64,000 bases of DNA from Arthonia radiata. Lineage: Eukaryota > Ascomycota > Arthoniomycetes > Arthoniales > Arthoniaceae. Where the stretch lies: contig PSQN01000015.1 of the NCBI GenBank assembly GCA_002989075.1, forward strand, positions 1,550,001 through 1,614,000, read 5' to 3'. Positions 25,821 to 61,012 of the stretch are shown piece after piece. The notes under the pieces were generated by a model that searched no databases, was not told where the DNA came from, and saw only the letters and a list, made by a program, of their open reading frames with translations. Numbering within the stretch: position 1 is the stretch's first letter; each line of letters starts with the position of its first letter. The position numbers and the translations under genes are program-made.

Positions 25821-27292
25821 TCAACACCCGCTCGTCGCGCTCGTCGCCGTGTTACAGAGGTCTCTCTCCTTGCGTCTCCTCCCAGTCAACAGACCATCGT
25901 TCGTAATCTTATCTGGCAATGCATCGCACGCACCGCCAAAGTCTCCACTGCTGAAGTAGCTCTTGAATGACCTCTCCAGGCCCCCGCACCCAGAATTATA
26001 CGTGAAGCTCACAAACGCCCCATACTGATTCGCAGTCAACTTCTTCGCGTTCGCCTGCGAGCACACGCAGTCCTCATACCCGACTAGATCCCTCCGAAAT
26101 AAGCCCTCGCCGTATTCCCTCGTCATGGGATCCGGTATCTTCGCACAATCCCCGCGCTGTGTGCAGTCGTGTCCGTAGCCGATAGTCTTGTCCCCGCCGA
26201 TGATGTATGAGTGTTCTCTAAAACCCTCCAGTTCCTTCAAGAGATTGATGGACTTCTCATTGACCGGATGCGGATCGCTGCTCGTCTGAGGCGGAGGAGC
26301 ATCACTACCGCCTGGGTTCTCGCCGATACCTGAGGTTTCCACACAGCACTGAACGTTCAAGTGTCAGCCTAATATTTTCTGAGCAGCGTGGTCATCAGAA
26401 AACCTGAGGGCGTTATGCGCTTTCGTTTCACGACCGCCGGGGATTGGGATCTTGATTGGGCCACAAGACACCACGGAATCCAAACCGTGGACGCTATGAG
26501 CTTACCTGGTTGTCGTCGCCGCCGCCACAGTAGCCAGGGATGCTAGTCGCTTTGCACGAGGAGGTGGATTTGCACGTCCCGTCGCCTCGGGGCGTATGGC
26601 ATGCGTCATTGGTAAGAGCATCACCGATCCCGGAGTTGGCCACGCAGCATTGGATGTCAGCTACGCCGGGACAGAAGCCGGGGATGCTCTTGGCGTTGCA
26701 GGCGGACGTGGACAGACAGTGACCGGCCCCTTGCGGGGTGCTGCATTTATTGTCGCCCATGCCGGAGTTGGGGACGCAGCATTGATTGTCGTTGCCCCCC
26801 GGGCAGTAGCCGGGCACGCTCTTGCCATCGCACACAGAAGTCGAGACGCAATTTCCGCCACCTTGGGGCGTGCTGCATTTATTGTCACCGAGCCCTGAGG
26901 TGGAAATGCAGCACTTTGAACACACACACATTAGCTCATTACCGTTCAGAAACTCGTGCGCTCTAACGACGACTCACCTGTATATCATCGCCCCCAGGGC
27001 AATAATCCGACACCTTCGTCCCACCACAGGACCACGTAGCCCTGCATGTGCCATCGCCCTTCGGCGTACTGCATTTTGGTTCGACGCAGCATTGGATGTC
27101 GTTGCCACCACCGCAATGGTCGGGGACGCTCTTGCCGCCTTTGCTGGAGCAGGCAGATGTGGAGATGCAGGCGCCCGGTCCCTGGGGCGTTTCGCAGGTC
27201 TCGGAGCGTTTGGCGTGGAGCGTGAGACTACCTGTGTGTGCGAATATTGGGGATGCGAGCGCGAGGAGAGAGAAGAGAGAGGGGAGGAACAT
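25821..27292 (-). CDS. Secreted GH24 (T4-type) lysozyme with five cysteine-rich modules
   Basis: Three exons (27292-26978, 26913-26506, 26348-25821) encode 416 residues. A signal peptide (FLPSLFSLLALASPIFA) is followed by a short pro-region ending in Lys-Arg, a likely Kex2 site. Five repeats of about 40 residues follow, each built as C-x-TP-x-G-x-G-x-C-x-ST-x-x-C, then PGYCPGG and D-x-QCC (about residues 33-255). The C-terminal domain (about 274-416) is a GH24 muramidase: LLKELEGF carries the likely catalytic Glu (about 282), then TIGYGHDC, LTANQYGAFVSFTYNSGCG. The enzyme should cut peptidoglycan, and the modules probably bind cell wall or stabilise the protein. Both introns are phase 0 and cut modules at the same point, Q|CC. 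A role in bacterial antagonism or feeding is inferred. Confidence 0.9.
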
Positions 27293-39732: not shown

Positions 39733-40521
39733 TGCTATGAGGAGGAAAGCAGCATGACAGGAGGCCCCGCGGTGGAGCAAAGAAGAAGCTCGACCTGCAG
39801 GATGGTCTTATCGCATGGTGAAAGGGTGGCAGATGTGGGCGCGGTGGGGAAGGCGCGATATGATCTGATATCGAACCGGGGGCGAATGCATGTGACTGGA
39901 GTCGACACAGCTTCGGCGAGTCAGATGAGCTGTCCGTTTGCGACAAAGAAGCCTTTCTTTGACAAGTGTCATAGACAATTGGTGCTCGTTGAATGTACGC
40001 CTACGTACGCCGCAAATGATGTACTACGCCCAGACAACGGAAAGAGTTTCGAGTATTGTTTGGCCCCTCTGCATAGGAGAGAACACGCCGCGTCTGAAGC
40101 TCTTCGTCTCTCACCGCAATTTGACCAGCCCAGGTACCGTGGTCCAAGGCTCCATTGCGTGATTTGTTGACCCACGTGACACAGCTATCAGACAATCAAG
40201 CGCATCATTCACGACTGCATTCCCATCAAAGTCGCGTCTATGCGAATCGATTACGAGTCGAAGTGAAGCGCGTTATTTACTTGACGCATTGAGATCGCCG
40301 GTGACAGTTATGCCGGAACCGACCAGTTACAACCCTAAGCCTTATATCTGGACCCTGAACCGATCGGGTCAGGCCCCGCAAACACCAAAGCCACTCAAAA
40401 TTCCGAGCACGCGCTTCTCTCTTCCTCCTCCTATTCATTTCACTATGTAGGTCCATCTAACAATCTTCCCTTCACCCTTTCGCTGGCCTTTCCCTCTGCG
40501 CTTGAGACTCGCTCTTCGTCA
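39733..40521. promoter_or_regulatory. Divergent promoter region of yvc1 and the carbamoyltransferase
   Basis: About 790 bases lie between the two divergent genes. The last 140 bases before 40522 are CT-rich. An ATG directly followed by TAG lies at 40445-40450; if transcribed it would be a start-stop upstream reading frame, although GTAGGT at the same place could instead be a leader-intron donor. Confidence 0.45.
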
Positions 40522-41682
40522 ATGTCACAGAGTCTCGCGCTTCAGGCCTCACAGGCCCTCAGGTCTTCGAGTTCGAGGTACACCATGGGCGCGTCCGTCT
40601 CTTCGAAAGTCACAAAGCACGCGTCCGTGCCATTCAATCGAGCTATCAGCAATGCTAGCAGACGCTCGTCGCCCGCTGTCGCTGCTGTCCATGCCTTCGA
40701 GGAGCCTCCCGTGTTCTTTCATGAGGCACCTCCTGCGCCCACCCGCGATCTCATCGCCAACTCTCCTTTCAAGAACAAGCACATTGTCTCGATTAATCAA
40801 TTTACGAAGCCCAACGTGGAGCACTTACTCCAGGTCGCGAAGAACATGAAACAAGCTGTAGAGACGCAAGGCATTCTCGACCTTCTGAGCAACAAAGTGC
40901 TCTGCACCATGTTCTACGAGCCCTCCACACGGACTTCAGCTTCCTTCGATGCTTCTATGCAGCGTCTTGGCGGTCGCACGATACCCATCAGCGTCGCTCA
41001 TTCCTCGACTGTCAAGGGCGAAACACTCCAAGACTCTATCCGTACACTGGCCTCCTATGGCGATGCGATCGTCCTCCGACATCCTTCGAATGACTCGGCC
41101 GACATTGCTGCCCGCGCATCGCCTGTACCAATCATCAACGGCGGCAATGGCTCGCGCGAGCATCCTTCACAGGCATTCTTGGACCTCTTCACCATCACTC
41201 AGGAGCTCGGCCGCGTCGAAGGCTCCACCATCACGTTTCTGGGTGACCTGAAATACGGGCGCACCGTCCACTCCTTAAGCAGGCTGCTTGCTCACTACAA
41301 TGTCACGCTCCAGCTCGTCTCTCCGAATGAGCTCAAACTCCCCTCGGCGGTCCGCGACGAGCTCGTCGAGCGCGGTGTCCGGCTCATTGAGTCTGATGAG
41401 CTGACCCCGGAGACCCTTGGCCGTAGCGACGTACTCTACTGCACGAGAGTGCAGCAAGAGCGCTTCGCCGATCCGGCACAGTATGAGCAGCTCAAAGACT
41501 CCTTCATTGTCAATCGCGAGGTGTTGAGACACGCGAAGTCGACATCAATCGTTATGCACCCACTTCCGAGGAAGGCGGAGATCTCTGAGGAGGTCGATAC
41601 GGATCCGCGCGCTGCTTACTTTCGACAAATGAGATATGGTCTATTTACTCGTATGGCGTTGTTGGCTATGGTCCTTGGGTAA
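40522..41682 (+). CDS. Stand-alone aspartate carbamoyltransferase
   Basis: A single exon of 386 residues. The first 60 residues are Ser/Arg/Ala-rich with few acidic residues, compatible with a mitochondrial targeting sequence. The rest is an aspartate (not ornithine) carbamoyltransferase: FYEPSTRTSASFDASMQRLG binds carbamoyl phosphate, SSTVKGETLQD carries the active-site Lys loop, EHPSQAFLDLFT, FLGDLKYGRTVHSL, VMHPLPRKAEIS, then DPRAAYFRQMRYGLF. In most fungi this activity is the C-terminal part of the large Ura2/CAD-type protein that starts pyrimidine synthesis; here it is a free protein resembling that domain. It could back up Ura2 or have moved to another role or compartment. The frame ends at GGGTAAGC, so a short final exon is possible. 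Confidence 0.88.
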   Translation: MSQSLALQASQALRSSSSRYTMGASVSSKVTKHASVPFNRAISNASRRSSPAVAAVHAFEEPPVFFHEAPPAPTRDLIANSPFKNKHIVSINQFTKPNVEHLLQVAKNMKQAVETQGILDLLSNKVLCTMFYEPSTRTSASFDASMQRLGGRTIPISVAHSSTVKGETLQDSIRTLASYGDAIVLRHPSNDSADIAARASPVPIINGGNGSREHPSQAFLDLFTITQELGRVEGSTITFLGDLKYGRTVHSLSRLLAHYNVTLQLVSPNELKLPSAVRDELVERGVRLIESDELTPETLGRSDVLYCTRVQQERFADPAQYEQLKDSFIVNREVLRHAKSTSIVMHPLPRKAEISEEVDTDPRAAYFRQMRYGLFTRMALLAMVLG

Positions 41683-42712: not shown

Positions 42713-43173
42713 TTGTGCCGTGAAGCGAAGAATTTCGTGGAGATGGGAGGAATGCCATAAGGCACCTTGCCCACTGGCATGAACAACTTGTCATACTCGT
42801 ATTAGGTCTCGAGTCGCGAAACGATGACAAGCAAGCTAAGAACACAGCTCTGCTATCGACATTGCGATAGCTGCGCTTCGTGCATCTATAGTAAGCAATC
42901 ACAACAATACCATCCAATCGCAGACTTGCATGTCGCGAATCAAATGGAATGAGGCTTGACCTTGGTGGGCAAGCAGCGGGGACAACACATTAACCAAGCA
43001 AAAAACCTTTCAGCGAGGCGAGCTTGACAATCAACACCTTACTGCTTGCTCCTCATTCTCCTCACGGCGAACCCCATGGCAGACTACATAAGTTGTCTGC
43101 ACCCGCCAGACGAAGATAAATCTCATACCCAGCGCAGACCATCAGTGCTATCAAAGACAAGCGAAAAGCAACG
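42713..43173. other. Intergenic, no gene seen
   Basis: 460 bases leading to the first P450-like gene; no supported coding sequence. Confidence 0.4.
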
Positions 43174-44652
43174 ATGGATTTCGCCACGGCTCTTTTCGAG
43201 TGGGCTTTGGATCATCCTAAGATAGCTCTGGCGACGATTGCAATGCTCATCGTTGCAACATTGTTCGTGCTCAACCGTAACGATTCAATACCGACCAAGA
43301 AGAAGAATCTGGACTTCGTGAGAGTCAATCGCAACATCATTGAGTGCAAATTTCCGCATCAGCAGGAGCCCAGCATGACACAGGCTTTGGAATTTCGAGC
43401 AATTCCGAACCAGCGTCTCTGTCGTGTGTTTGGCATCGACAATGCATTCACCACAAAGTCACCGGGACGTCGGACAGAGTTAAAGAACCAAGCGAGGAGG
43501 CTCATGAACAACGCCAAATGGCCGGAACTTGCACGTCAGGCTGCAGAGATTCTGCGGCATGCAATTGAGAATCAGGAAATATTTGAGGAGCGCGACGACT
43601 TGTGTCGTTCCGTCCGCCTGGCACCATTTGTTCAAGAGCTTACGTTCAAGGTTGCATTGAAGGTTCTTTTCGACCGCGATTCTAGCAACGTGAGCGGCGT
43701 CGCTGTCTCAACAGAACGCATCAATGAGCTCTGGATGACCTCGAAAAGCGGCCCCCTCAGTGAGCTCCCCGAATTTTCCCGGGAGGTGGAATTACGCGCT
43801 GCGCTGCTGACCGTTTTGCCCGGTTGCGATCTCGATACTCCTGCTCATAACCCGCTCAATCTAATTTTGCCGGCCTACGAGACTATGTGGCGAGTTGTGC
43901 TACTTGGCTTCGTGGATTGCCAGCATCATACATTCGGCTGCAGAGACGCTAGAGCCAACAATGAGATCTTCAATCCGGCACTCGTCGCGCTTGAAGCCTT
44001 TTTGGCTGATCCCAACATGACTGACGAAGGCAAGCCCAATAAAGACGGCGAACACCCGGATCGGACAGGTGACAAGAGCTTCACTGCATTCGACGTCGCC
44101 CGCGAAGCGCTGCGGCTTTATCCGTCGATCAAGAGCATTTACCGGGAATCCCCCCCTCGGCCTGGCATTGCAGGAGTCTTTGATACTGTTTGGTATATGC
44201 TGGGTCTCACCTCAAGACAGGTTCAAGTAGATGTGATGGCGATGCACCGTCTCGAAGACGGTGTGTGGAAAGACAGCTGCGGCAATTCCGACGACACATC
44301 TGTACCTGTTCAGAAATTCTATCCTCGACGCTGGCTTCGTCAAAGCACACCCGAGATTGCGAGAGCATACGTTCCATTCGGACTTGACCGGTTTCGCTGC
44401 CCAGCTCACCTTGACTATGGCAACAGAATGGTCGCGCTTCTCATTGCGACGTTGGCCACAGGTCTACGCGATCACGATATTCAGAGCAGTCACAACGATG
44501 AATTCTTGGTCCGTCCAGAAGCTCTCCCACAAGGCCGGAAGGATCTCGAGCAGTGGGTTGTCTTTCGTCCCCTGTCAGGCTCGCAAGTACTCACCAGCAA
44601 CAGCGAACAGCATAGTCTTCCAATCCAACACGCTGGAGATGGGCAGATCTAG
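43174..44652 (+). CDS. Divergent cytochrome P450-like protein, copy 1
   Basis: A single exon of 492 residues. An N-terminal membrane anchor (KIALATIAMLIVATLFVL) suits an ER protein. P450 landmarks in order are the K-helix EALRLYPS (Glu about 311, Arg about 314), a PERF-like FYPRRW, and the haem-loop region YVPFGLDRFRCPA with Cys about 409. The loop departs from F-x-x-G-x-R-x-C: Gly and Arg at their usual places are Asp and Phe. The I-helix oxygen-activation motif is absent; the corresponding region reads YETMWRVVLLGF. It is clearly a paralogue of the next gene (shared FGIDNAFTT, PxNLILPxYExxWRVxLLGF, CQHH). It may be a P450 with unusual chemistry or one that has lost mono-oxygenase activity. 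No redox partner gene is nearby. Confidence 0.75.
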   Translation: MDFATALFEWALDHPKIALATIAMLIVATLFVLNRNDSIPTKKKNLDFVRVNRNIIECKFPHQQEPSMTQALEFRAIPNQRLCRVFGIDNAFTTKSPGRRTELKNQARRLMNNAKWPELARQAAEILRHAIENQEIFEERDDLCRSVRLAPFVQELTFKVALKVLFDRDSSNVSGVAVSTERINELWMTSKSGPLSELPEFSREVELRAALLTVLPGCDLDTPAHNPLNLILPAYETMWRVVLLGFVDCQHHTFGCRDARANNEIFNPALVALEAFLADPNMTDEGKPNKDGEHPDRTGDKSFTAFDVAREALRLYPSIKSIYRESPPRPGIAGVFDTVWYMLGLTSRQVQVDVMAMHRLEDGVWKDSCGNSDDTSVPVQKFYPRRWLRQSTPEIARAYVPFGLDRFRCPAHLDYGNRMVALLIATLATGLRDHDIQSSHNDEFLVRPEALPQGRKDLEQWVVFRPLSGSQVLTSNSEQHSLPIQHAGDGQI

Positions 44653-45262
44653 GTGAGACGCAACGTTGAAGTGCGGCCTCATTACGCTGTTTCGAAGATG
44701 GTTTCTGCTAACGAACGGCAACATATTACGTACTCCAAGATTGCAGAAGTTATTTACGATTTGCTTTCTATCTTTGTTTCTTATCTTCTCGCAGTGGTAC
44801 TGCTTCGGTGAACTCAACGTTTTTGAAGATCATTTCTTACTTAGATAAAATCATCCATGTTTGAAGTATGCACCACGCCAAACATCTCTTGCATTCCAAC
44901 AAGGTGATGGACGTCGCCATCGTCTGGGCGGAATTCCTACCCACGTTTTGTTCGGTTCACAAGCAAACGCCATTCAAGGCCTCGCTGCACATCAACAACG
45001 TTCTAGATATGGGTCGACGTGCACCTGCGATCGAGCGGCATAGCCGTCGGCTACCTGCATATCCTCATTTCTTTCTGCAGCGTTCGACACAAAGGTAGTT
45101 GCAGGGATCCCACCACGAGCAAACGCCGATGTTTGCTTTGTGTGACTGCGTCATGGCATTGGACGAAGGTTCAAATTGTCGTTCTACTTGTGTTTCCTGT
45201 TCGTTTCTGACTTGAAAAGAGACCTGCAATTCCTCCACACCCAGCTACACAGGCCTGCGGAA
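44653..45262. other. Intergenic between the two P450-like paralogues
   Basis: 610 bases; the frames on both strands lack coding character. Confidence 0.4.
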
Positions 45263-46843
45263 ATGGAACGCATCATCAGCCAGATCAAGACGAGACCGAC
45301 ATCGCATCTTCTCGCGTTTCTTGCGGGGATGCCCGTAGGCTACGGTGCTTCGGCACTGACCGCTCGCCTTTGGCGCTCTTCTGTGTGGACCTCAGCCAGA
45401 CCCTTCACATGCCCACCACTTCTCACGGCAAGGGCTTTGCCATCACACGCCGGCAAACCATATGCGGCTTCCACCACGTCATGTGAGACTGCTAAAGATC
45501 TCTGCCCTGCCGACAACGAGCACTTCGTCTCCGAGATGACCAATCTCATTGCGGGTAAGACAAGTGCAGATCATATACCTGACCTGAAAGCTATTCTGGA
45601 AGCTCGCGCGCTGGCCAATCGTGGCATGCGTCACGTATTTGGCGTCGACAACTCCTTCACCACGACGAATTCGCACCGACGTGCGGACTTTACAAGAAAA
45701 GCGAAAAACACTCTTCGGAACGTCAGTTATGGCTGGATGGAAGCCACTGCCAGAAAGATGCTCCTCCGTGAGATACGCAAACAGCGCAATACCGATGAGT
45801 CCTACCAGGGCGCCATCCAGGTCTCGGTGGCCTCCATAGTACGCCGTGTGAGCTTTTCAGTTGCGTTGGAAGTCATATATCCAGATCTGAATGCAATGAC
45901 GCTGAATGACCGCGATGTCAGCACAGTCACTGATGCCATCAACGACCTTTGGATCCTAATCAAGAGCTCCGACGACATCCACTCGCTACCAAGCTTTCGG
46001 GAGCTGACTGCGCTGCGTCAAGCGCTGCGAGCCATGATACCCAATGCCGACCTCAACAACCCGGTCGAAAATCCCATGAACCTCATCATTCCCTCATACG
46101 AAGCTATCTGGCGGGTCACTCTTCTTGGCTTCTTGAGCTGCCAACACCATGTGTTCGATCCTAGCAGCGAGGCTGCCACCCGCACTGAGGTATTTGAACC
46201 CTCGCTCAGCCACTTGCAAGCTTTTCTGGCCTACCCAACAATGCAAGACGATGTCGCGAAGAGAACTGGGAAAGATGGCAACTATCCGGCGTTCCCCATG
46301 GGCGCGATGAACATCGCAAAGGAGGCACTGCGCCTATACCCGTCGACCAAGAGTATCTACAGACATCTGGAGCTTGAGGAGGGGGCCGGCACCTGCCCCG
46401 TGCGCATTCCAGTCGACCAGCTGCATCGTCTCAAGGACGGGGTATGGGAGGACCAAGACATCCGCGACGGAGACGGCAAGATGGTAGATGTCAAGCGCTT
46501 CTGGCCAAATCGATGGAACCATCCACTCTCCCCATTGGCGAGCAAAGCCTACATCCCATTCGCAACAGGTAACTCTTACTGTCCTGCCAGGGAGGGGTTT
46601 GGTGAGCGCATTGTCGCACTCTTGATCGCCACACTTGCCAAAGGGCTGAAGGATTACAAGATCACCTGCGATGACGACTCGTTAACCCGATCAGAGTTGC
46701 TGCCGTCTGCTCGTGAAGGTCTGGAGCGTTGGAAGGTGGTCGGTCGCCAAGCCGCGAATGATGATGAAACAGACATCAATGCTATTGAGTTTCAGTCTCT
46801 GCTGGGGTATCGTGTTGATACTTCGCGGACGCCTCACGCCTGA
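45263..46843 (+). CDS. Divergent cytochrome P450-like protein, copy 2
   Basis: A single exon of 526 residues from the ATG giving MERIISQIK; upstream in-frame codons have no ATG. The N-terminus is mildly hydrophobic (SHLLAFLAGMPVGYG) but a less clear anchor than in copy 1. K-helix EALRLYPS (Glu about 354, Arg about 357), PERF-like FWPNRW and haem loop YIPFATGNSYCPA (Cys about 440) are present. Here F, G and C of F-x-x-G-x-R-x-C are kept and Arg is Ser. The I-helix motif is again missing, replaced by YEAIWRVTLLGF. The tail is about 40 residues longer than in copy 1. The pair arose by tandem duplication and has diverged greatly. Confidence 0.75.
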   Translation: MERIISQIKTRPTSHLLAFLAGMPVGYGASALTARLWRSSVWTSARPFTCPPLLTARALPSHAGKPYAASTTSCETAKDLCPADNEHFVSEMTNLIAGKTSADHIPDLKAILEARALANRGMRHVFGVDNSFTTTNSHRRADFTRKAKNTLRNVSYGWMEATARKMLLREIRKQRNTDESYQGAIQVSVASIVRRVSFSVALEVIYPDLNAMTLNDRDVSTVTDAINDLWILIKSSDDIHSLPSFRELTALRQALRAMIPNADLNNPVENPMNLIIPSYEAIWRVTLLGFLSCQHHVFDPSSEAATRTEVFEPSLSHLQAFLAYPTMQDDVAKRTGKDGNYPAFPMGAMNIAKEALRLYPSTKSIYRHLELEEGAGTCPVRIPVDQLHRLKDGVWEDQDIRDGDGKMVDVKRFWPNRWNHPLSPLASKAYIPFATGNSYCPAREGFGERIVALLIATLAKGLKDYKITCDDDSLTRSELLPSAREGLERWKVVGRQAANDDETDINAIEFQSLLGYRVDTSRTPHA

Positions 46844-47404
46844 GAACCCAACCTGCTCACTGCTCAGCATCCGGACTGGTAACACCCAGGCAGCTCGCAC
46901 AGGTGCTTCAAGCAATGCGACATGCCCTTGAGCAAGTGAGCCGCGTGGCGGCGAGGGCGGGACGATGCAGACAACATGGAGCGATACCAACGGTGTACGC
47001 TAGGAGAAAGCGACAGATTACGGCCTCGACATTTCCGGTACATCGCGTCACACATTGAAAAGCAAACATCAGGTCATCTGCAACATAGAAGAACACTGAT
47101 ACCAAAAATACAAACTGTAGATGGTGCAAACACGTGTTCTTCCTTTCGCTTTGTCCTTGCGTTGTTAGCTTTCCCTCTTCTCCAGCTGTTGAGTCATTTG
47201 CGTCGCAAACACATACGCCATCATTTGGGCTCACGTATGGGCACGCATCCCCTGCGAAGTATAGATGAACAAGCTCAAGCGCCCCGCACACTTCATCGCA
47301 GCAGGAATAGCAAAGATAAGACTACCAGGGAGCATGAGACATCGTCAACGTGACCGTGATACGCAGGACGCAGCCATCTCCATGAGTTCTACCAAGAGAC
47401 TTAC
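46844..47404. other. Intergenic, start of the duplicated-unit region
   Basis: No gene is supported. Near 47361-47378 the sequence ACGCAGGACGCAGCCATC matches the 3'-flank block found after the other members of the small-gene array. Confidence 0.4.
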
Positions 47405-47815
47405 TCAGCTCCCTCTGCTCTTTCCAGGCAGCCCCAAACTTTCAAGCATATCAGAGATCTCCGAGCGCACGTCACGGCTCTTCAAGTCCAAATGACCGTC
47501 CCACGCCTTTTCATTCCTGTCGTAGTGCTCTTTCGGCTCATAAAACGTCACGTGATAGCCGTCCCTGCCGTCTCCACGTTAGCACAGCTTCCTCGCCCGT
47601 TGCACTGTTGGGTATGTCACCGACTGGTTATGCTCAACCAACGCCACTCCGGCAGTAAGATTCTGCGCCTTCTTCGTATCTGTCACCCCGGTGGCGACTT
47701 TAGACCCCCAACCCATGTCCAGCTTGGCGAGCATCTCGTATGCGACTCCCTTGACAAGCAGGAGTTCGCCGTCGGGCCATTTGACTGATACGGTGCCGGT
47801 CTGACGTAATGACAT
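47405..47815 (-). CDS. Array family protein A (W-x-x-G-E-L small protein), two exons
   Basis: Exons 47815-47625 and 47564-47405 give 116 residues. The 60-nt intron has a GTGCTAAC branch site and GGCAG acceptor; the only donor that keeps frame is GTCGGT (phase 2). The family core is SVKWPDGELLLV, then a variable helix ending in ALVEHN, then after the intron DGYHVTFYEPKEHYD, WDGHLDLK, and a Gly/Ser-rich end. There is no signal peptide. Members B and C and a decayed copy F lie in tandem on the same strand with common flanks. The pattern of short strands plus one helix suggests a small beta-rich domain. Function unknown. Confidence 0.6.
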
Positions 47816-48349
47816 GATGGATGCTGTAGTGGGATAGATGCTGTAAGAGCACAGATAGTTAGTGAAGCGTTGAGGACAGAGGCTGTAAGAAATATGCGAG
47901 TTTTGGGTTTACGATAAACGCGGTGTTATGCGGTCTTCAATGCTAAAAGAATTTATAGAGCATTACGTACGTGTTCAACAGATGGCCACAGTATGTTAGA
48001 GCACGCATATTGGGAGCATCTTGCGAGCGCGTTCAGCTCATTGCAAATTTTCGCGTTTCGAGGCTATTCTACGACGAGGTCTCACTGTGAAACTTCCCAA
48101 ATAGGTGGGGACACCTTCGTCGATACGATACGCTTCTCTCTACACAAGACGCAACGGTTCCCTTGACGTTGACTGGGACATCAACTCACTACGCTTTCTC
48201 CTTGCCAGGCACCCCTAAGCCTCCGTAGGTAACGACATCCACCGCTTACAAGATGTGTCGCATATCAGCGGACATCCCCACACCTTTTTTCTTCTCCTCT
48301 AAAGGTACTCCTCGGAATCGGAGAACCTTAAACAGAAACCTCCCTTCCT
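47816..48349. other. Promoter side of unit A and spacer
   Basis: No gene is seen; the shared promoter-side blocks of the array lie at 47971-48150. Confidence 0.5.
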
Positions 48350-48615
48350 ACCGTCTTTGCGATAGCATAACTTTTTCGTCCATTAAGTTATAAGAGATAC
48401 TATACTCCGTCTTCCAATCTACTAGCGCGAAGCGAGCAGTGACTTTCCCTTCCTTTTTCTTGACCGTCACCGTTTCGGCGAGTTGGGGACTCCTGCGCGT
48501 GTGCGCGTCGCTAAACGAGCAGCTCGCCGTCGTCCCAGTCGATGTCCACGTAGCCGAGTCCGCTTGTATTGGGCTTGTATTCAGACTTGGGTGTGATGTC
48601 AGATTTGGGCTCAGG
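48350..48615 (-). pseudogene. Decayed array copy F
   Basis: On the minus strand the family start is visible as GYVDIDWDDGELLV, then the match continues one frame over with SDAHTRRSPQLAETVTVKKK, FALVDWKTEYSISYNL. This parallels members A to C (GELL, then Tyr/His helix, then ALV-x-W/H). A single-base frame change inside the gene and no proper start codon indicate a pseudogene. It lies between A and B in the same orientation, with family promoter-side blocks immediately upstream. Confidence 0.6.
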
Positions 48616-48870
48616 CTGGCTACAACTTTCGACCTTTCTACTTTCGTCTTTCGTGTACGACGAGGCTTCGCTGTGAGACTTTTTGGAAGGGCAAGGGCGT
48701 CTTCGTCGATACGACCCCTTTGCCTTTATGCGACATTAAGGTAACATTGAATGGCAGTCCATTTAGGCGATCGCTTTAGTGTATATTACCAAGACAGAGC
48801 ACGCTTATTGTATAGTGTCTATACTTGGGATCTAGTAGTAATTACACATAAGACGCAGCCATCGTTATGT

Positions 48871-49216
48871 TCACAACATTATTGGCTTAGCCCACAGCGC
48901 ATCCTCAAGTATCTTCTTCTTCTGCGCGTTATGTTCGTCCATCGGATCAAAAACTGTCACGACGCACCTCAAGCCGCCGTCAAAGCTACCGTCCATGCGT
49001 CAGCAAAACTCCAGCACTAACGGCGTCTGCAGAAATAACGAACGGCTGCAGGTTCACACGCGCGACGCGACCGTAAACTTGGTAATCCTTTTGCTTTTGC
49101 GTCACCGCATGTGCGACTCTGGCACGTCTTTTCTCTGTGAAGAGGGCAAGGCGCGCGTATACGGTCCACGTGACAAACAGTTTGCCATCGGCCCATGGCA
49201 ATTCTATAGGCGCCAT
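48871..49216 (-). CDS. Array family protein B, two exons
   Basis: Exons 49216-49044 and 48985-48871 give 95 residues. The 58-nt intron runs GTTCGT..GGTAG with a GCTGAC branch site and sits in phase 2 at the same place as in gene A. The protein reads IELPWADGKLFVTW, then a basic helix (TEKRRARVAHAV), then RVARVNLQ, then after the intron RCVVTVFDPMDEHNAQKKK. The W-x-x-G-[EK]-L core and the intron position place it in the same family as A and C. The 3' block CACATAAGACGCAGCC overlaps its stop codon region. Confidence 0.55.
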
Positions 49217-49721
49217 GATAGATGAGGGAAGTTCATGTTGTGAGAGCAGAGATAGCTGTATACTTGGCAAATTAAGAAGGAGAGTAAAGAGAATGTAGGG
49301 GGTTTTATTGGAAGTAAAGACGAGGCTGCGCGGTCCTTGGAATCATAACGTGTGTGGATTATTGCCAACGTGTTCAACAGGTATCAGCAACTGCATAGAT
49401 CACATTGGCTAGAAGCATCTTACAAGCATGTACAGCTGGCTACAACTCTCGGCCTTTCTAAATTGGTGCACGACGCGGTTTCACTATAAAACTTGTGAGC
49501 GGGTGAGTAGATCTTGGTATAAGATAACGCATCTACCTACGACCGCAAACTCCCTTCCGATGGCAATCTATTGTACGATCATTTCTAAGCACATCTCCAG
49601 GATACAGCACGCTTAATCTGTATCGTGTATATTGGGATATAGTAGCAACAACACATAAGACGCAGCCATCGTATTGTCTACAGATAACTGCCCTTCGAAG
49701 ACACTTTCAAGTCCTCAGAAG

Positions 49722-50087
49722 TCACGAAGTCCGCTTTTCAGGAGCAGGGTCCACGTCCAGCGGTCCATCGTACTCCACTTCTCCGCGCTTGTACTCCCAT
49801 CTCGTCTTATAGAGTTTCACTGAGAACTTCAAAACGCTCTTGCGGTCGCTAACGTACGACTTGTGATCCACCACCGCGACGCGAGTAGAGATGCCGGAAT
49901 CCTTCTCGAATGCCTGTGTCTTGGCCGTCACCGCATTCGCGATTTTGGTACTGTTGGCTTTAAGATGCAGTTCACACGACCTGTATGTGTCTGACTTGGC
50001 GAGCAGCTCGCCACCAGCCCATGTCACTTTCTGCGGCCCCTTGCGAGGATGAGGAAGAAATATGAAATCCTGAGGAATCTGTACCAT
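49722..50087 (-). CDS. Array family protein C, single exon
   Basis: An uninterrupted frame of 121 residues starts MVQIPQDFIFLPH. Family core: QKVTWAGGELLAKSDTY, IANAVTAKTQAF, TRVAVVDHK, then SVLKFSVKLYKTRWEYKRG and YDGPLDVDP, which aligns with WDGHLDLK of A. The intron found in A and B is absent; a few extra residues (SYVSDRKS) occupy that position. This is the clearest member for building an alignment. There is no signal peptide, and the function is unknown. Confidence 0.65.
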   Translation of the reverse strand: MVQIPQDFIFLPHPRKGPQKVTWAGGELLAKSDTYRSCELHLKANSTKIANAVTAKTQAFEKDSGISTRVAVVDHKSYVSDRKSVLKFSVKLYKTRWEYKRGEVEYDGPLDVDPAPEKRTS

Positions 50088-50440
50088 CTTGTGAAAGTAC
50101 GAATAGCTGGAGATCAAACAGTAAGGGATCGGGTCTGAAGAGTTTATGAGTCTGAAAGGTTTTGGATAAGGTGAGATGAGGCGCTTTCCGATGTTTAAAA
50201 AGCTTGTGAAACACTGTCAACGTGTTCAACAGATGTCATGCGATCAGGCTACAGAACCTGCAGCCTCCTGCAAGCGTACATAGCTGGCTGCAAGCATGGG
50301 GACTGAGAGGCTCTTGTATGAGAGGGTCTCACTGCGAAACCCCTAGCTGGTGCGGAGACCCTTCGGTTGAGACGACGTACGATAGCAAGGTAGATTGAGA
50401 TGGCGAGCCAGCCAGGCGATCGCTTTCATGCAAATCTCTA

Positions 50441-50985
50441 GGGTGAAGAGCGTTGTGCATGTCGCGATGCAGTACTGGACACAGTACGAAGCCATACGCG
50501 TAGAACTTAGGCACTTGGCGAGGTAGCTCAGGGCAGTGGACACTCCAGTAGGGTCTGCTTACTTCCGGATCTACGCATCCAAACCAAATTGCAAAATGGC
50601 TGGGGTCGGTATCAAAAAGAGGCGTGGTCAAAGCGCATTTAGGCTTCGGAAATCCTAATTGACGGGATTCCAGGCATCGGAGTCTTGGTGGATTCGCGCA
50701 GGTTGCAGTTGGGAACGGGGCGGAAGACAGTCTGTGTACCGCGCGGATCAATAGCCACAGTGTTACTCGGTAGTTTGCAGTTTGCTCAGCGAAATCGTTG
50801 AATGAAGAGGTCTAAGGGTCGTCCAGATAAACGTACTGGCATAAAACGGTGGAAGTAAACGATCGTGTGAGTAGTAAACAACTCTTGTACTTTCGGAAAT
50901 AGCAGTATCCCACTCTTAGGGGTTACTGCCCCTATCTTTTTGCGCTATAACCTCTTGAGCGTAGTGTTCCGGCCCCTACGGTCAG
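50441..50985. other. Intergenic after the array
   Basis: Frames on the minus strand lack coding character. The stretch separates the array from the SAT4-type gene. Confidence 0.4.
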
Positions 50986-52326
50986 CTAAATAATCTCACT
51001 GCGGTCGCACCTTTCCACATCCTTCAACTCAACATACAAATCCGTTCGCTTACCCACCTCTTGATGACCCGTAATATCCATACCGTGACCCTGTACAGCC
51101 GCCGCCGCCGCCGAAGAGGCCGAGGCAAACCCCGGCATAGTTGCTTTGCGCACGCGACTCCGCCTGTCATTCGAGTAAAGCTCTCGATCTAATGCGTAGC
51201 GCGCACCACGCGCCATTCGCCGAAAACTTCGATGCGTTTGGTAGTGTGTGTAGAGCTGCCGCAGCGCTGGCAAGCAGGCACAGATGATGGCGCCATACAT
51301 CTCAGCAGCGACCCAGTACGATAGCACCGGGAGGTTCCACTGAGGATCGTTAGAGGAGAATTTCGTGCACACGGCTCGTCCGATGCTGGAGCTGGCGGTG
51401 ATGATGCCACAGCCTAGGATGGCGAACAGGCTGCTCTTGGTGCGGCGGTCGATCTGGATGTGCTGGATTGCGAAGATGGGGATTAGGGCGCATTCGAAGT
51501 CGATCACGCAGTTGAAGCCTAGAAGGATGGGGCTTCGTTAGTCCGCCATCCAAAGAAGCCGACCGCTCGGCTCATCAAAGAAGCAGACGGAGTGGGGATC
51601 AGGAGAGCGTACCTGCAAGGATCTGATTAACGACATCGAGCGTATGCCGGTTGAGACACCATCCCGGAGTTTGGGGATAGAAGTATTTGCGCATGGGAAT
51701 GCACATGATCCAGTAGGTGATACAGGTGCCGAACCTGTTTCCATGAAGGTCGTTATTATTACAGCAACTGACACGGTGGAACTTGATGGGATATAGGACA
51801 TACATGACAGCGAAGTTCAGGACCATACCTGCGTAAAGCAGCCTTGTCCACTTGCGGATGCTTCCGAGAATGCGCAGGAGAAAAACAATAATAGACGCTC
51901 GCGTAAAAGCGAGACTGGGCGGGTTGAACGTGTTGACAGCGATGTTGGTTTTTTGAATGATGATAAGTTGAGCCGGAGTGAGGAGCACATGATGATGACC
52001 GAAGTGTCCTTCGTATATTTCAATCATGTGGGTTATCAGGTACCCTACTCCAAAGATCTTCCCTTGGCGTTCAGCAAATACATTACTGCGAAGACGTCTT
52101 GGACATCAACCAGCAGACTCACCATGCCCACAAATATCAGGCTATCGTCCCATCCAGCGGCTGATTTGATCCAGACACGCGTGTACAGGCGCAAGAACAC
52201 GCAGATGCATGCGATCGATGTTATCGTAATGTCAAAGATCGGTACCCCCGGAATGGCACGACTAACGTCTTTCATTCCCAGCGGAGCAACGCCGATGGTC
52301 TGTGGAGGATCTCGTTCGTACAGCAT
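50986..52326 (-). CDS. SAT4/PTH11-type seven-helix membrane protein (rhodopsin-like fungal domain)
   Basis: Four exons (52326-52123, 52057-51804, 51734-51613, 51518-50986) encode 370 residues; introns are 65, 69, 94 nt and all joins are in phase. The first segment (FDITITSIACICVFLRLYTRV) followed by AGWDDSLIFVGM is the classic start of the fungal rhodopsin/SAT4 domain. Further landmarks are FGVGYLITH, LAFTRASIIVFLLRILGS, CITYWIMCIPM, PGWCLNRHTLDVVNQILAG, DFECALIPIFAIQHIQIDRR and KSSLFAILGCGIITASSSIGR. The tail is cytosolic. The 69-nt intron is divisible by three, so retention would also be readable. Relatives act as surface receptors (Pth11-like) or are uncharacterised; the ligand is unknown. 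Confidence 0.85.
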
Positions 52327-54977: not shown

Positions 54978-55874
54978 TCAAGAGACTTGCTGTGTATGCA
55001 GCTTGTCGTCATTCTCCATCTCGACAGTCACCTGTGCGGCTACGATGAATCCCATATACTGGGTACCAAGGTCAGAATCGAAAAGTCACAGCGGTTGCAA
55101 TCAGAGCACTCACGTAGTCTAGAAGATCCGCTTCCGTCAGAAATCTGAGGACATAAATACGTGAGACTGTCAACCTGCACGAGCGCCAGCTGCCGCTCCT
55201 GAAACTTGCTTCTCCGGCTCCAGATTCTGCGCGTGCCGAATGCATACTCGCTTCTAGCTGGAACTCCGCTTCTGTATCCGGGGATCTCCAGCTCGGACCT
55301 CTGGACTGTCGAAAGTATATGTCGACACGATCACGCATGCATTCAACGACAGTGGTACGTTCGTCATGCTGAGCGCCGCGAGAGGCCGAGAATTCCATCT
55401 TTAGCTTTTCCGCAGTACTGACGGGCGTGAGGTCCCACCCGCTGCCGGTCAATCTCTCACCCCCTTCCGTAGCCGTCTCCCTGATCTCGCCCTCCTTGCC
55501 TGAGCTGCGTCTCATTACGCAATGCGAATAGTTGCCCAAAAGGACGGTCACTGGCAAGAAGGATTCGATATCTATATTCTGAATCAGTAATCACTCTGAA
55601 GTTAAAATTAAATGCTGTTCCGTCATCGCGCAAGCCTCGCGTGGCGCGGATTGAGGAAATCAGGTCAATTCTCATACATACGTAAAGCCGTTCCTTTGTA
55701 CTCATCGCCCGTGTCCTCTTTCTCGACTACCTGCAACAGACGCTCGCCTTGAGAGCCACCAGGTCCCTCACGGAACACTTCGATCACTCCGGGTGAGCTC
55801 GGATAGGGCGTGACGATAAGGTAGTGTTTGTCGGTATCTGCTGATTTTATTGCTTGCGCTGAAGTTGCCGCCAT
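54978..55874 (-). CDS. Orphan protein, three exons
   Basis: Exons 55874-55682, 55571-55114 and 55058-54978 give 243 residues. The introns run GTATGT..ATATAG (110 nt) and GTGAGT..CCCAG (55 nt, TTCTGAC branch site); phases agree, and the third exon only reads sensibly in the joined frame. Visible segments are KHYLIVTPYPSSPGVIEVF, a linker rich in Gly/Glu/Arg, FRQSRGPSWRSPD, RIYVLRFLTEADLLDY and the end VTVEMENDDKLHTQ. No signal peptide, membrane helix or known domain is visible. It lies within the accessory zone next to the small-protein family; a relation to that family is not evident. Confidence 0.5.
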
Positions 55875-56576
55875 TGTGACCGTAAATCGATCTTTTTTTT
55901 CCTTGCAATGGGATACTAATCGATCAAGGTTTCGGTCAAGTTATTCCTTCTGATACTCAGCATAGAAAGGAAACCACTAGGGATATGCGCAGGCTTTAAG
56001 TAATGCTCTATCGCTCATGTCTATCGCTCATGTCAAGCCAGTAATGCCTCGCAGAAGCGAGCTCTCCTGCAATCGCTCAGCTTCTGTCCACCTGCATCCC
56101 TCTTCGCCCACGTCGCACGCAATCGCGGTTCTTGTCGGTCGCGGCAAGAACAGGTTCCGCAAGCATAAGACTGTTCGGCACAAGCTAGGCCTTGCAACAA
56201 TGGATGATCGCCGCTTGAGGCCGCCAGACCCCGGTCTCCGTAATACGTATATTCAGACGTCAGTATTTGGAGAGCATTCTGCTGCTGAAATCAATTACTC
56301 AGTCAGGATGACTGCACCATACATTCACACAACTATTCCGATCTTGGCAGTCTTGTAAACCCCACTTGTGTCGAGAAACAAGAAGCGAAAAAAGCGTTTC
56401 CTGCCGACGCAGCGCACCTAGCCACTCAAGCGATGATGCAGCGTCGTTGTGCCATCCCAAAAATGCCTTCCAGCTTTCAGATCCGCTTCCGTCTTATAGA
56501 AGCCGACAAAGTAGACCCAATGCCTGGGCTGGATATCAGTATGACAACGTGACCCTATCTCACGCAAGCTCACGCC
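55875..56576. other. Intergenic, no gene seen
   Basis: A 113-codon + frame at 56017 is present but lacks domain or splice support. Confidence 0.35.
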
Positions 56577-56907
56577 TTACAGCGTCTTCACATCAAACCA
56601 CTCATGCTTGAGCAGCGCGAACTTTGCGCCGGCAGTAGCTTCGCTATTCAATTCATACAGTTCTTCTACGCCTTCGCGGGCCGGATCCCGCCATCTGGTA
56701 CCGTGTGCGGCCTCGAGTATTCCGTGGGTGTCAGCAGGTATATTGATGAAGAAGCCGAATTCGACGGATTCGAGGCGTTCGTTCTCGAGACGGGGCATGG
56801 TGTTTGCGCTGTCGAGGGTTTTCTTTCACGGCGGGTAACTGAGTGATGCCGCTGAGATCCACCATGAAGCATGTGTTTGCTGCAATCGTGATGACCGGGG
56901 TAAGGCG
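56577..56907 (-). pseudogene. Probable broken gene or unresolved exon
   Basis: Coding-like sequence on the minus strand runs first as PVITIAANTCFMVDLSGITQ (about 56900-56830) and then, one frame over, as MPRLENERLESVEFGFFINI, ILEAAHGTRWRDPAREGV and KFALLKHEWFDVKTL before a stop at 56577. No GT..AG pair connects the two frames, so a small frame change is the simplest reading. An ATG at 56798 gives a 73-residue intact part. No family is recognised. Confidence 0.35.
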
Positions 56908-57183: not shown

Positions 57184-57555
57184 CTAGATCTGCTGATCGC
57201 CAATATCAAGGTCTTCTTTCATAATGAACTTGCCAGCTCGCATGTCGGTCTCATCCTTATAAAACCTGACCTGATACTTGAGAGTCCTAGATGCCGCCTG
57301 TCAGCCAAAAACCGCTGGCTGGCCATGCAAACAGTTCATTGTGTTTGGACAGACATGATGAGACGATACCTACAATGTTTCAGAAACCTTTGCGAGACTG
57401 GCACGCTCGAGCTCGGTATCGTGTTGCTTGTGAAAGCTCTCAACGCTCCCTTTGGTCAGACTTTGCCATCCGCTCTTGTGCTTACTTCTCAGCACCGCGC
57501 AGGCGACTTCGGTGACCTCAATGTGGCCGAAACTCGTCTGAATTTTCGGACTCAT
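57184..57555 (-). CDS. Possible distant array-family member E, two exons
   Basis: Exons 57555-57374 and 57286-57184 give 94 residues, with an 87-nt phase-2 intron (GTAGGT, GGCTGAC, TCTAG) as in genes A and B. After the intron the sequence KYQVRFYKDETDMRAGK then LDIGDQQ resembles YHVTFYEPKEHYD then LDLKSRD of gene A. The first exon (SFGHIEVTEVACAV) lacks the W-x-x-G core, so the relationship rests on the second exon and intron phase. Confidence 0.4.
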
Positions 57556-58196
57556 CGCGTGCGGTTTCGGATGTCAAGGAGAGTCAAATGATATAGCACG
57601 GGTCTTTCGAGAGGTTCGGTTCGATCTTCGACGGGCTAAATTGGCCTCCCAAATGGCAATTGCTGTTAACAGTCGACGTTCACGCTCAGAGTGTATATGC
57701 CCTTTCTTTCTGGTTTTTGCGGCGACACATCGTTCGGGAAAGTTTGGGAACCCATAGGTGCAGAAGCCAGATTGCGCAGTTCGAGCTGAGTTTCAGAGGA
57801 CTGATAGAGGTCAATACTGCGACGCAATGCCACTCCGAAACGAGGTGAGGATACACTCGGCCCCTAGCTGCAAGATATAGCTGAGGGCCATTTTGCGTTG
57901 ATCATAGCCTGCACTAATGGCATTCACTTATAGGTCGACAAAGAGTTGCGACCACTGGTCTAGCAAAAAAAGGGCAACAACCCTTTTATGTGCTCCCATT
58001 GCCCTATGTCATCTCACAGTGTCTTCTGTTTGCAAGACATTGTCGGTGTAGCCTCACACAGCCCACGGGGTCAATCTAGCTTGCCCCTACTTTGCTACCA
58101 GAAATTAGCAAAACACAAGACGCGCCCCGCTAATAGATCTTGTTCGCTCGCGTAGAACCCAATTAAGTACTTGAACGGGTGCCTAGAGGATGATTA
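57556..58196. other. Intergenic, no gene seen
   Basis: 640 bases with no supported coding sequence. Confidence 0.35.
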
Positions 58197-58495
58197 TTAG
58201 TATTTTACGCCAGAAGACCAGTCGCACGCTGGCGCAACGGCATGGAGAAAAGGACGATCGGTATCATACACGTTGAATTGGGAGACTCTGGCACACTCAG
58301 TACCCATTGACTTGGGTATATTTTGTCGACAGTACTCTTCCGCGACTCTGCACAATTGTTCCTCCCAAGAGGGATGAAACCCGAGCTTCATATGGGCAGC
58401 AAGAGTGACAAAGATTTTGCCTTCAGTCGTGGGTTCATTGGGTCCAAGACTGAAAGTCCATGGGATGGAGTGTTCATGTTCAGTTGGCGTTTCGG
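58197..58495 (-). pseudogene. Possible distant array-family member H, 5' end missing
   Basis: A minus-strand frame beginning after an acceptor-like CTTAAC..GACAG reads TEHEHSIPWTFSLGPNEP, then TEGKIFVTLAAHMKL, CRVAEEYCRQNIP, ARVSQFNVYDTDRPF. The part EGKIFVT..RVA..ARV resembles DGKLFVT..RVA..ARV of gene B. No start codon or first exon fits upstream, so the copy is probably broken or its 5' exon is unrecognised. Confidence 0.35.
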
Positions 58496-59829: not shown

Positions 59830-61012
59830 TTGCGTGAGTGGGCACCAACGTACAGACCACTGCTCAATGTTGTAATTCTTGGCGCAGCGTCCTTCCTCTG
59901 CCTGTGTAGTCTCACGTGCGCGGGAAACGTATCGCTATCGCAAACCCCACCTGATTGTGTCCTTCAAGTTCCAGAGCTGGCAATGAGTGAGGCGGATCAG
60001 TTTTGAGCCTTCGCCTTTTGCTTGGAGTACGGACCAGACTTAACGGACACCTTCGTAATAATTCGGATACGGAAAAGATTGCGGCAGCAACAGTTTCGCG
60101 TTCTGGCCTGTGTGCCACGCTTGAGACTGCGTAGAACCCGAAGTCGACCTATGCGTGCAATGTCCCGATCGGCCTAGTCCGCTTCCGGAACCAGATCCTC
60201 CGACCCGCCGCAACATTTTCCATTGTGAGAGTCGGCCAGAGATGGCCAAAATCTCCGTTGTAGTCCGAACATGGAAACTCGTCACTGAGACTTTAGGCGA
60301 GGTCTACGTGAGAAACGTTATTCCTAGGGTTCCTTATCCTGCGCTTATAAACATTCTCTATAGCCCCTTTCTCTGGAAAGGCAAGTACAATTTCTAGATA
60401 CGTAAGTTGAGCATGGACCTGGGAGGGTAACGTAGCGACAGACGGGTTTGGCGGGCGGTGGGTGGGAGGTCCAGGTGACTGCAAGAGCTGTGGTGTATGG
60501 TGTCGTCTTTTGGGCCCGTCTAGGTGAGCTTTCTAGGCCTCCTATCGACTCCTCTACGTGACGCAACACCTGTCGTCTCTCGCTTATCCTAGTGCAATCA
60601 GCGTTCCGCATAAGGCAAATGAAGGCAAGGATGGCTCCTGCGTTGGTTGGTTTGAGGTAGATCTGCGAACGCCTTGCCTTGATTGAGCACGGGCTCATTG
60701 CTGGATTGGGTAATATACAAGTCAAATGGGGCCGCCTTGATTCAAGACCCTTGAGGTAAGGCACGTTTGAAGATCGATTTGTACCTTGCCTTGCCTTGAG
60801 CCTTGCCTTGAGCCTTGCCTTGAAGTGCCTTGCCTTATGCAGAACCATGAGTGCAATGGGTGGAGAATCGACTACGTTGCATCTTCTACCCCTTTATATC
60901 AGACCCAGTCACACTTTGGGCTGCATGCCTGTGATCAGTTCAAACCGCCCGCCTGCACTTCGCGCAACACCATACCTTCCACACTGCTGCAGCACCCACA
61001 ACGCTCAAGGAC
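59830..61012. other. Gene-poor stretch with CCTTG-rich repeats
   Basis: No gene is supported. From about 60670 to 60840 the motif CCTTG recurs often; its densest part is the minisatellite at 60784-60836. Confidence 0.4.
60784..60836 (+). repeat. Minisatellite, 12-bp unit
   Basis: At least three head-to-tail copies of CCTTGCCTTGAG are followed by two degenerate copies. Similar words occur singly at 60672 and 60735. The array is upstream of the small gene at 61013. Confidence 0.75.

What the first reader, a model, noticed from the sequence alone, without database searches (positions are those of the whole stretch)
47361..50440. Tandem array of an unrecognised small-protein family (A, F, B, C)
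Seen: three minus-strand genes and one decayed copy share a core W-x-x-G-[EK]-L-[LF], a central helix ending in (A/R)V-x-x-V, and a last strand pair (F-Y-E/D, WDGHLD or YDGPLD). A and B have a phase-2 intron at the same position; C lacks it. Their flanks are also duplicated. I know no family with this signature. Tandem, fast-diverging, short, intron-variable genes in an accessory region suggest adaptive or conflict-driven evolution.
Basis: partly seen in the sequence, partly recalled or inferred. Interest (0 to 1): 0.75.

Follow-up and report, generated by a model that had tools for sequence, protein, structure and literature searches.

The report
Tandem family of small fungal proteins
A fungal chromosome carries about six related but very divergent genes and one dead copy for a small protein of about 100 residues that matched no family in the libraries searched; it looks like a local gene family under weak purifying selection, without a sign so far of an evolutionary arms race.

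Summary
A, B, C and the decayed copy F are homologous, lie in tandem on the minus strand with duplicated flanks, and A and B share a phase-2 intron that C lacks. The family is larger than reported: three likely members (H, G, I) lie 6-8 kb away on the same strand (56.4-58.5 kb), each with a phase-2 intron at the corresponding place. All five modelled introns have an RCTRAY branch site 9-11 nt before the acceptor. A profile comparison links the two groups (hhalign 22.2; best of 150 column shuffles 15.6), though several single-exon tests between groups fail. Pfam, NCBIfam, PHROGs, PADLOC and PDB sequences give no credible match. C is modelled fairly well (pLDDT 78, pTM 0.69) as bb-a-a-bb-a-b without a convincing fold match. 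H, weakly modelled, is b-a-b-b-a-b; its weak nearest folds are IsdG/ABM-type dimeric barrels. Average omega of A/B/C is about 0.5, below all 120 neutral simulations, so the adaptive or conflict reading has no support here. Best reading: a new, possibly lineage-restricted family of small intracellular alpha+beta proteins evolving by tandem duplication and decay. Molecular function is inferred only. No fungal genome collection was available, so distribution is untested.

The parts
47405..47815 (-). Gene A: 116-aa protein, two exons (47815-47625 and 47564-47408), stop 47407-47405
   Evidence: similarity to B and C
47565..47624 (-). Phase-2 intron of A, 60 nt, GTCGGT...GCTAAC, 11 nt, AG
48200..48640 (-). 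F: decayed copy; matched pieces 48514-48555 (WDDGELL core) and 48417-48485; in-frame stop after the core, a frame change, no ATG in the 85 nt before the core, close to 200 nt of upstream sequence missing; the most RIP-like composition inside the array
   Evidence: exon-1 HMMs also list it
48871..49216 (-). Gene B: 95-aa protein, two exons (49216-49044 and 48985-48874)
48986..49043 (-). Phase-2 intron of B, 58 nt, GTTCGT...GCTGAC, 11 nt, AG
49722..50087 (-). Gene C: 121-aa protein, intronless
   Evidence: model
56418..56798 (-). Gene H (new): 107-aa protein, exons 56798-56581 and 56523-56421, phase-2 intron 56580-56524 (57 nt, ACTGAT 9 nt before AG); chosen among 6 enumerated joins
57184..57555 (-). 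Gene G (new): 94-aa protein, exons 57555-57374 and 57286-57187, phase-2 intron 57373-57287 (87 nt, GCTGAC 11 nt before AG); chosen among 17 enumerated joins
58095..58475 (-). Gene or remnant I (new): exon 2 58182-58098, phase-2 intron 58269-58183 (87 nt, ACTAAT 11 nt before AG; chosen among 5 enumerated joins); no in-frame ATG upstream of the core within the open frame and no last WDGxLxL strand, so possibly decaying
47969..47981 (-). CTGTTGAACACGT upstream of A
   Evidence: identical in A, B and C; longest identical run of the three upstream regions, reached in 1 of 10000 column shuffles
49368..49380 (-). CTGTTGAACACGT upstream of B
50220..50232 (-). CTGTTGAACACGT upstream of C
48079..48093 (.). 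Palindrome-like GTTTCACAGTGAGAC upstream of A; versions at 48665-48679 (F, 3 mismatches), 49478-49492 (B, 2), 50326-50340 (C, 1)
   Evidence: 10 matches with up to 3 mismatches, 8 of them these four sites counted on both strands; 0 of 100 shuffles reach 10
48825..48875 (-). 51-nt repeat downstream of B, 84% identical to 49632-49682 downstream of C

Best explanation
A, B, C, G, H and I (F dead) are one unrecognised family of small (about 95-120 aa) intracellular alpha+beta proteins in a filamentous fungus, growing and shrinking by tandem duplication. SHOWN by computation: homology within each group and, more weakly, between the two groups; a shared phase-2 intron between the two strands of the long hairpin, absent in C; whole-codon indels and sub-neutral omega in A/B/C, so these are or were until recently translated under weak purifying selection; a co-duplicated upstream region with a fully conserved 13-nt element in A, B and C. 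INFERRED: each protein is a compact beta-alpha-beta-beta-alpha-beta core (with an extra N-terminal strand in C), perhaps dimeric. Because only a turn glycine and a buried alanine are invariant and no polar residue is, it probably works by binding (a partner protein or a small hydrophobic ligand) rather than by one conserved catalytic chemistry, the copies differing in binding surface and A, B and C being expressed together through the conserved upstream element. Rapid divergence then reflects duplication with relaxed constraint rather than an arms race.
For: Pairwise scores: A-B, A-C, B-C, G-H, G-I, H-I 0 of 1000 shuffles each, B-I 1 of 1000. An exon-2 HMM from A, B and C alone ranks H (E 0.051) and G (E 0.31) directly behind the three training ORFs among 2384 six-frame ORFs. 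Leave-one-out exon-2 HMMs put A, C, G, H and I (5 of 6) directly behind the five training ORFs, E 3.8e-6 to 0.032. hhalign ABC versus GHI: 84 collinear columns, P 0.0034, though HH-suite's database-style probability is only 9.5%; score 22.2 against 150 column shuffles, mean 9.8, maximum 15.6. The 5 modelled introns are phase 2 with RCTRAY 9-11 nt before AG; 305 of 8346 AG sites in the window have RCTRAY within 3-25 nt. Exon-1 indels are 15 and 3 nt (A against B) and 12 nt (C) (where C was cut at 50042). Omega ABC 0.47, 2dlnL 5.8; 0 of 120 neutral simulations had as low an omega and 1 of 120 as large a likelihood ratio. GC3 0.60-0.67 in A, B, C, G, H against 0.68 in three reference ORFs. Of columns with at most one gap, only G26 and A71 (C numbering) are invariant and 13 others are hydrophobic in every member present. 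C model pLDDT 78.3, pTM 0.69; H model made without A, B or C gives the order b-a-b-b-a-b.
Against: No expression data and no homologue outside this window. Of nine cross-group pairs only B-I is strong; the other eight are reached by 18 to 937 of 1000 shuffles. The GHI exon-2 HMM does not find A (rank 26), C (187) or B (438); the ABC exon-2 HMM does not find I (rank 326); the ABC exon-1 HMM does not find I (rank 49), G (89) or H (1250); the GHI exon-1 HMM ranks C 12 (E 4.8), B 127, A 280; leave-one-out exon-1 HMMs miss G (rank 24) and H (rank 828), and the leave-one-out exon-2 HMM misses B (rank 197). Splice models of G, H and I were picked among 17, 6 and 5 possible joins, partly by their branch sites, which inflates the branch-site count. 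GC3 of I is 0.54. The H model is weak (pLDDT 58.6, pTM 0.50) and includes 19 residues of intron. C and H are not shown to share a fold. The 'binding, not catalysis' step rests only on the lack of invariant polar residues in one MAFFT alignment. GHI synonymous sites are saturated.
Confidence: 0.6

Rival explanations
1. The family is a much diverged branch of the dimeric alpha+beta barrel proteins (ABM / EthD / Dabb / NIPSNAP class), perhaps an accessory enzyme or cyclase-like factor of a metabolic pathway together with the two neighbouring P450-like genes.
For: H model secondary structure is b-a-b-b-a-b; its eight best PDB matches are IsdG, IsdI or a putative antibiotic biosynthesis monooxygenase; of the 50 rows listed (558 matches in all) 12 are such proteins by title, two more are S. 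aureus PG130 (1sqe, recalled as IsdI), and 3 are NIPSNAP-like. Two paralogous P450-like genes (40% identical) lie beside the array.
Against: All matches are weak (E 0.14 or worse, target-normalised TM at most 0.44 among these) on a model with pLDDT 58.6. The better model, C, does not point there: best E 0.39, with only three ferredoxin-like rows (two CutA1, one PII) that I recognised in the 50 listed of 422. No Pfam match at E up to 10 for G, H, I or A, and none of this class for B or C.
Confidence: 0.2
2. One reading: adaptive or conflict-driven evolution (for example incompatibility, anti-parasite or drive genes) explains the divergence.
For: Tandem, short, very divergent, one dead copy, variable ends; omega about 0.5 is high for a constrained protein and differences are nearly even over codon positions, e.g. 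B-C 0.48, 0.48, 0.47.
Against: Omega is below neutrality, 0 of 120 neutral simulations as low; no match to known families was found, including the PADLOC defence models, which are of prokaryotes.
Confidence: 0.12
3. Repeat-induced point mutation (RIP), not selection on the proteins, produced much of the divergence and killed F.
For: Composite RIP index of 12 half-kilobase bins inside the array averages -0.07 against -0.62 (sd 0.38) in 241 bins elsewhere; 6 of the window's 19 RIP-like bins (of 255) start and end within the array, and those over F are its highest, 0.40 and 0.48. The thresholds are recalled, not from a call.
Against: Transition/transversion ratios between copies are only 0.74-1.06 and kappa 1.63, without the transition excess RIP leaves, although saturation could hide it. 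Reading frames of A, B and C stay open with whole-codon indels. Similar or higher RIP-like values also occur outside the array (1-750, 50501-51250). The H/G/I cluster is not RIP-like (0.67, 1.26).
Confidence: 0.15
4. All copies are pseudogenes or chance ORFs without protein products.
For: F is clearly dead; I lacks a start and its last strand; no expression evidence.
Against: Sub-neutral omega, five consistent introns, codon-sized indels, GC3 close to that of known genes in five of six.
Confidence: 0.07

Closest known systems
Orphan and species-specific paralogous gene families of filamentous ascomycetes, e.g. those counted in Zymoseptoria (PMC4502367; only passages found by term search were read)
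   Same: Genes without assigned function, some in paralogous sets; the passages report 1798 orphan genes in Z. tritici, 95.5% without attributed function, and 15 families of duplicated species-specific genes.
   Different: Those passages stress small secreted proteins enriched among orphans; these proteins show no evident signal peptide, and whether they are restricted to one lineage is untested here.
Dimeric alpha+beta barrel proteins (IsdG/IsdI, ABM)
   Same: b-a-b-b-a-b order in the weak H model; weak Foldseek matches at ranks 1-8.
   Different: No sequence match, no invariant polar residue across the family, and the better C model does not match them.

Membership tests
ABM / EthD-type dimeric alpha+beta barrel | Pfam profile match | tested here: not met
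   No Pfam match for A, G, H, I at E up to 10; B only unrelated matches at E 0.13 and 0.15; C none
ABM / EthD-type dimeric alpha+beta barrel | Ferredoxin-like b-a-b-b-a-b fold | tested here: inconclusive
   H model has the order, but pLDDT 58.6 and TM at most 0.44 to such proteins; C model bb-a-a-bb-a-b without such a match
ABM / EthD-type dimeric alpha+beta barrel | Dimer | not testable with these tools
   No complex prediction was available
Secreted fungal effector (small secreted protein) | N-terminal signal peptide | tested here: inconclusive
   No predictor on hand. By eye the N-termini of A, B, C, G and H lack a typical signal core; the most hydrophobic 11-residue stretch starting in the first 25 residues averages only 1.13-1.75 on the Kyte-Doolittle scale
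Secreted fungal effector (small secreted protein) | Cysteine-rich chain | tested here: not met
   0 or 1 cysteine in each of A, B, C, G and H
One gene family A, B, C with G, H, I | Significant similarity plus shared gene structure | tested here: met
   hhalign score above 150 of 150 shuffles; 5 of 6 members modelled with a phase-2 intron at the corresponding place. Several single-exon profile tests between the groups fail
Lineage-restricted (orphan) family | No homologue outside a narrow lineage | tested here: inconclusive
   C and the H exon-2 ORF not found in viral contigs, C not found in prokaryote contigs; no credible match in the profile libraries; fungal proteomes not available

The most novel reading that the evidence does not exclude
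An undescribed fungal protein family with its own small alpha+beta arrangement (hairpin, two helices, long hairpin with the intron at its turn, short helix, edge strand), whose members in one genome have fallen to about 12-32% identity to C while keeping the fold, and A, B and C a common promoter element: a compact binding scaffold being diversified in tandem.
Probability: 0.35. Interest if true: 0.45.

Novelty: new member of a known kind. Interest (0 to 1): 0.3.

Why it matters
If true, it adds an unnamed protein family, without a match in a Pfam copy whose newest models date from 2025, with a testable fold and a usable signature: G of the first turn, an A in the strand after the helix ([RG]-V-A-x-V in A, B and C), phase-2 intron, and in G, H and I the exon-2 motif F-Y-x-x-E-x-D-[LM]-x-A-G-[RK]. 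It is a convenient case for asking how small intracellular families diverge after tandem duplication in fungi without an evident arms race. The kind of thing (divergent paralogues of unknown function in a fungus) is common, so the interest is moderate.

Tried and rejected
Known-family searches gave nothing credible: Pfam (best stray match E 0.058, to a piece of B), NCBIfam, PADLOC, PHROGs (best E 0.033, one of 11 fragments), PDB sequences with one protein and with profiles (10, 27, 72; best E 0.61), viral contigs with C and with the H exon-2 ORF (50, 51), prokaryote contigs with C only, Rfam over 42-64 kb. Foldseek of C against BFVD gave best E 0.055 and query-normalised TM at most 0.36 in the 50 rows listed of 854; judged chance. 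Paper searches for similar small tandem fungal families or EthD expansions were seen as listings with abstract beginnings only (79 listed none); PMC4502367 was read in passages. These searches do not show that the family is absent from print. RIP as the main driver was considered and held weak.

A possible relative at 55.0-55.9 kb (stretch RIYVLRFLTEADLLDY) was considered and dropped: that ORF does not appear in the part of the exon-2 HMM listing that was printed.

A first counting script stopped with an error after its dN/dS table. Codon-model runs in iqtree2 did not print a usable omega, so omega comes from my own codon likelihood script (43, 61); two fits of the same data gave 0.47 and 0.50. 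In one search the simulated branch length was 1.0; pilot runs at 0.9 and 1.1 gave p-distances of 0.39 and 0.47, so the simulations may be slightly less divergent than the real copies. Three alignments made for the second structure job came out badly and were not used for it; two earlier ones for the first job were superseded (22, 23).
Full report
Setting. The window is from a filamentous fungus, an inference from gene content and introns (fungal rhodopsin domain, Clr2, YVC1-like channel); no genome is held for it. The array lies on the minus strand between two P450-like genes (43-47 kb) and a fungal-rhodopsin gene (51-52 kb).

The observation. Reading the minus strand gives C (121 aa, intronless), B (95 aa) and A (116 aa), with F as a dead copy between B and A. 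Pairwise local scores for A, B and C exceed all of 2000 shuffles each. Their core is W-x-[DG]-G-[EK]-L, followed by a helix and the strand [RG]-V-A-x-V. Exon-1 indels are 15 and 3 nt between A and B and 12 nt in C. The flanks are copied too: upstream identity is 0.50-0.56 against a shuffled mean of 0.42 and maximum of 0.49; downstream, B-C is 0.74 over 107 nt and A-C 0.60, while A-B (0.49) is within the shuffled range. A 13-nt element, CTGTTGAACACGT, is identical upstream of A, B and C; such a run arises in 1 of 10000 column shuffles. A palindrome-like GTTTCACAGTGARAC lies further upstream in all four copies, with 0 to 3 mismatches.

The family is larger. Weak tblastn hits of A and C at 56.5 and 57.3 kb (E 1.5-5.1) led to three more genes on the same strand: H, G and I. 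They resemble each other strongly (0 of 1000 shuffles for each of three pairs) and I resembles B (1 of 1000); the other eight cross-group pairs are weak, 18 to 937 of 1000. As a test, an exon-2 profile of A, B and C alone was run on 2384 six-frame ORFs: H (E 0.051) and G (E 0.31) came directly after the three training ORFs, while I was not found (rank 326). Leave-one-out exon-2 profiles recovered five of six members directly behind the training ORFs, not B. Leave-one-out exon-1 profiles recovered A and B likewise, and C (E 0.47) and I (E 0.74) directly behind F, but not G or H; the GHI exon-2 profile did not recover A, B or C. The whole-length profile comparison of the two groups aligns 84 columns end to end (P 0.0034; HH-suite probability 9.5%) and beats 150 of 150 column shuffles. 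Five of six members are modelled with a phase-2 intron between the strands of the long hairpin, each with an RCTRAY branch site 9-11 nt before the acceptor; 305 of 8346 AG sites in the window have such a motif within 3-25 nt. The joins of G, H and I were picked among 17, 6 and 5 possibilities, so this count is not wholly independent. I take homology of all six as likely, with the link between the groups less secure than the links inside them. I lacks an in-frame ATG and the last strand and may be decaying.

Selection. Counting gives dN/dS 0.51-0.72 for the A, B, C pairs; likelihood gives omega 0.47 (2dlnL 5.8 against omega 1) or 0.50 in the refit, and 0 of 120 neutral simulations, realigned through protein, had as low an omega, 1 of 120 as large a likelihood ratio. 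G/H/I give 0.18, but synonymous sites are saturated. On average the proteins are under weak purifying selection. This speaks against adaptive evolution as the default reading but does not test single sites or strains. The array has RIP-like dinucleotide skew, strongest over F, without a transition excess between copies; RIP may have helped to kill F.

Structure and function. AlphaFold2 of C with fragments of the five others gives pLDDT 78.3, pTM 0.69 and the order bb-a-a-bb-a-b. No PDB or viral fold matches it convincingly (best E 0.39 and 0.055). H, predicted with G and I only and with its 19-residue intron read through, is weak (58.6 / 0.50) but has the order b-a-b-b-a-b, apart from a helix in the intron stretch, consistent with C less C's extra first strand; its nearest folds are IsdG, IsdI and ABM proteins at E 0.14 and worse. 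Across all six only a turn glycine (C26) and a buried alanine (C71) are invariant, and 13 further columns are hydrophobic throughout. I therefore favour a small binding scaffold, possibly dimeric, over an enzyme with one fixed active site; this step is inference. No signal peptide is evident in A, B, C, G or H, without a predictor.

Verdict. The finding is a real, unassigned family, probably larger than reported, of a common kind: divergent tandem paralogues of unknown function in a fungus. The adaptive or conflict interpretation has no support in what could be measured. How far the family reaches in fungi could not be tested.

Noticed in passing
43120-44652 and 45146-46843 (+): Two adjacent paralogous genes (40% identical) with no Pfam match at E up to 1; motifs recalled from P450s (EALRLYPS; PFGLDRFRCPA) and a weak PDB profile hit to vitamin D3 24-hydroxylase (E 0.25) suggest very divergent cytochrome P450s.
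   Followed up: partly
25821-26973 (-): Phage-type lysozyme domain (PF00959, E 2.3e-18) next to an ORF of repeated cysteine-containing segments, by eye about 43 residues each.
   Followed up: no
40339-41682 (+): A stand-alone aspartate/ornithine carbamoyltransferase ORF with 146 residues of open frame before the first domain match; true start not determined.
   Followed up: no
60588-60860: GCCTTGCCTTGA-type short repeats by a 31-nt inverted repeat, 81% complementary; neighbouring bins at 60001-60750 are RIP-like.
   Followed up: no
1-750: Strongest RIP-like dinucleotide skew of the window (composite index 1.15 and 0.64); perhaps the edge of a transposon.
   Followed up: no
54990-55874 (-): Uncharacterised gene (MAATSAQAIKSAD...) without Pfam match at E up to 1, between the two clusters; its stretch RIYVLRFLTEADLLDY resembles the family's FYKTEADLKAG motif by eye but is not in the printed exon-2 HMM listing.
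   Followed up: partly
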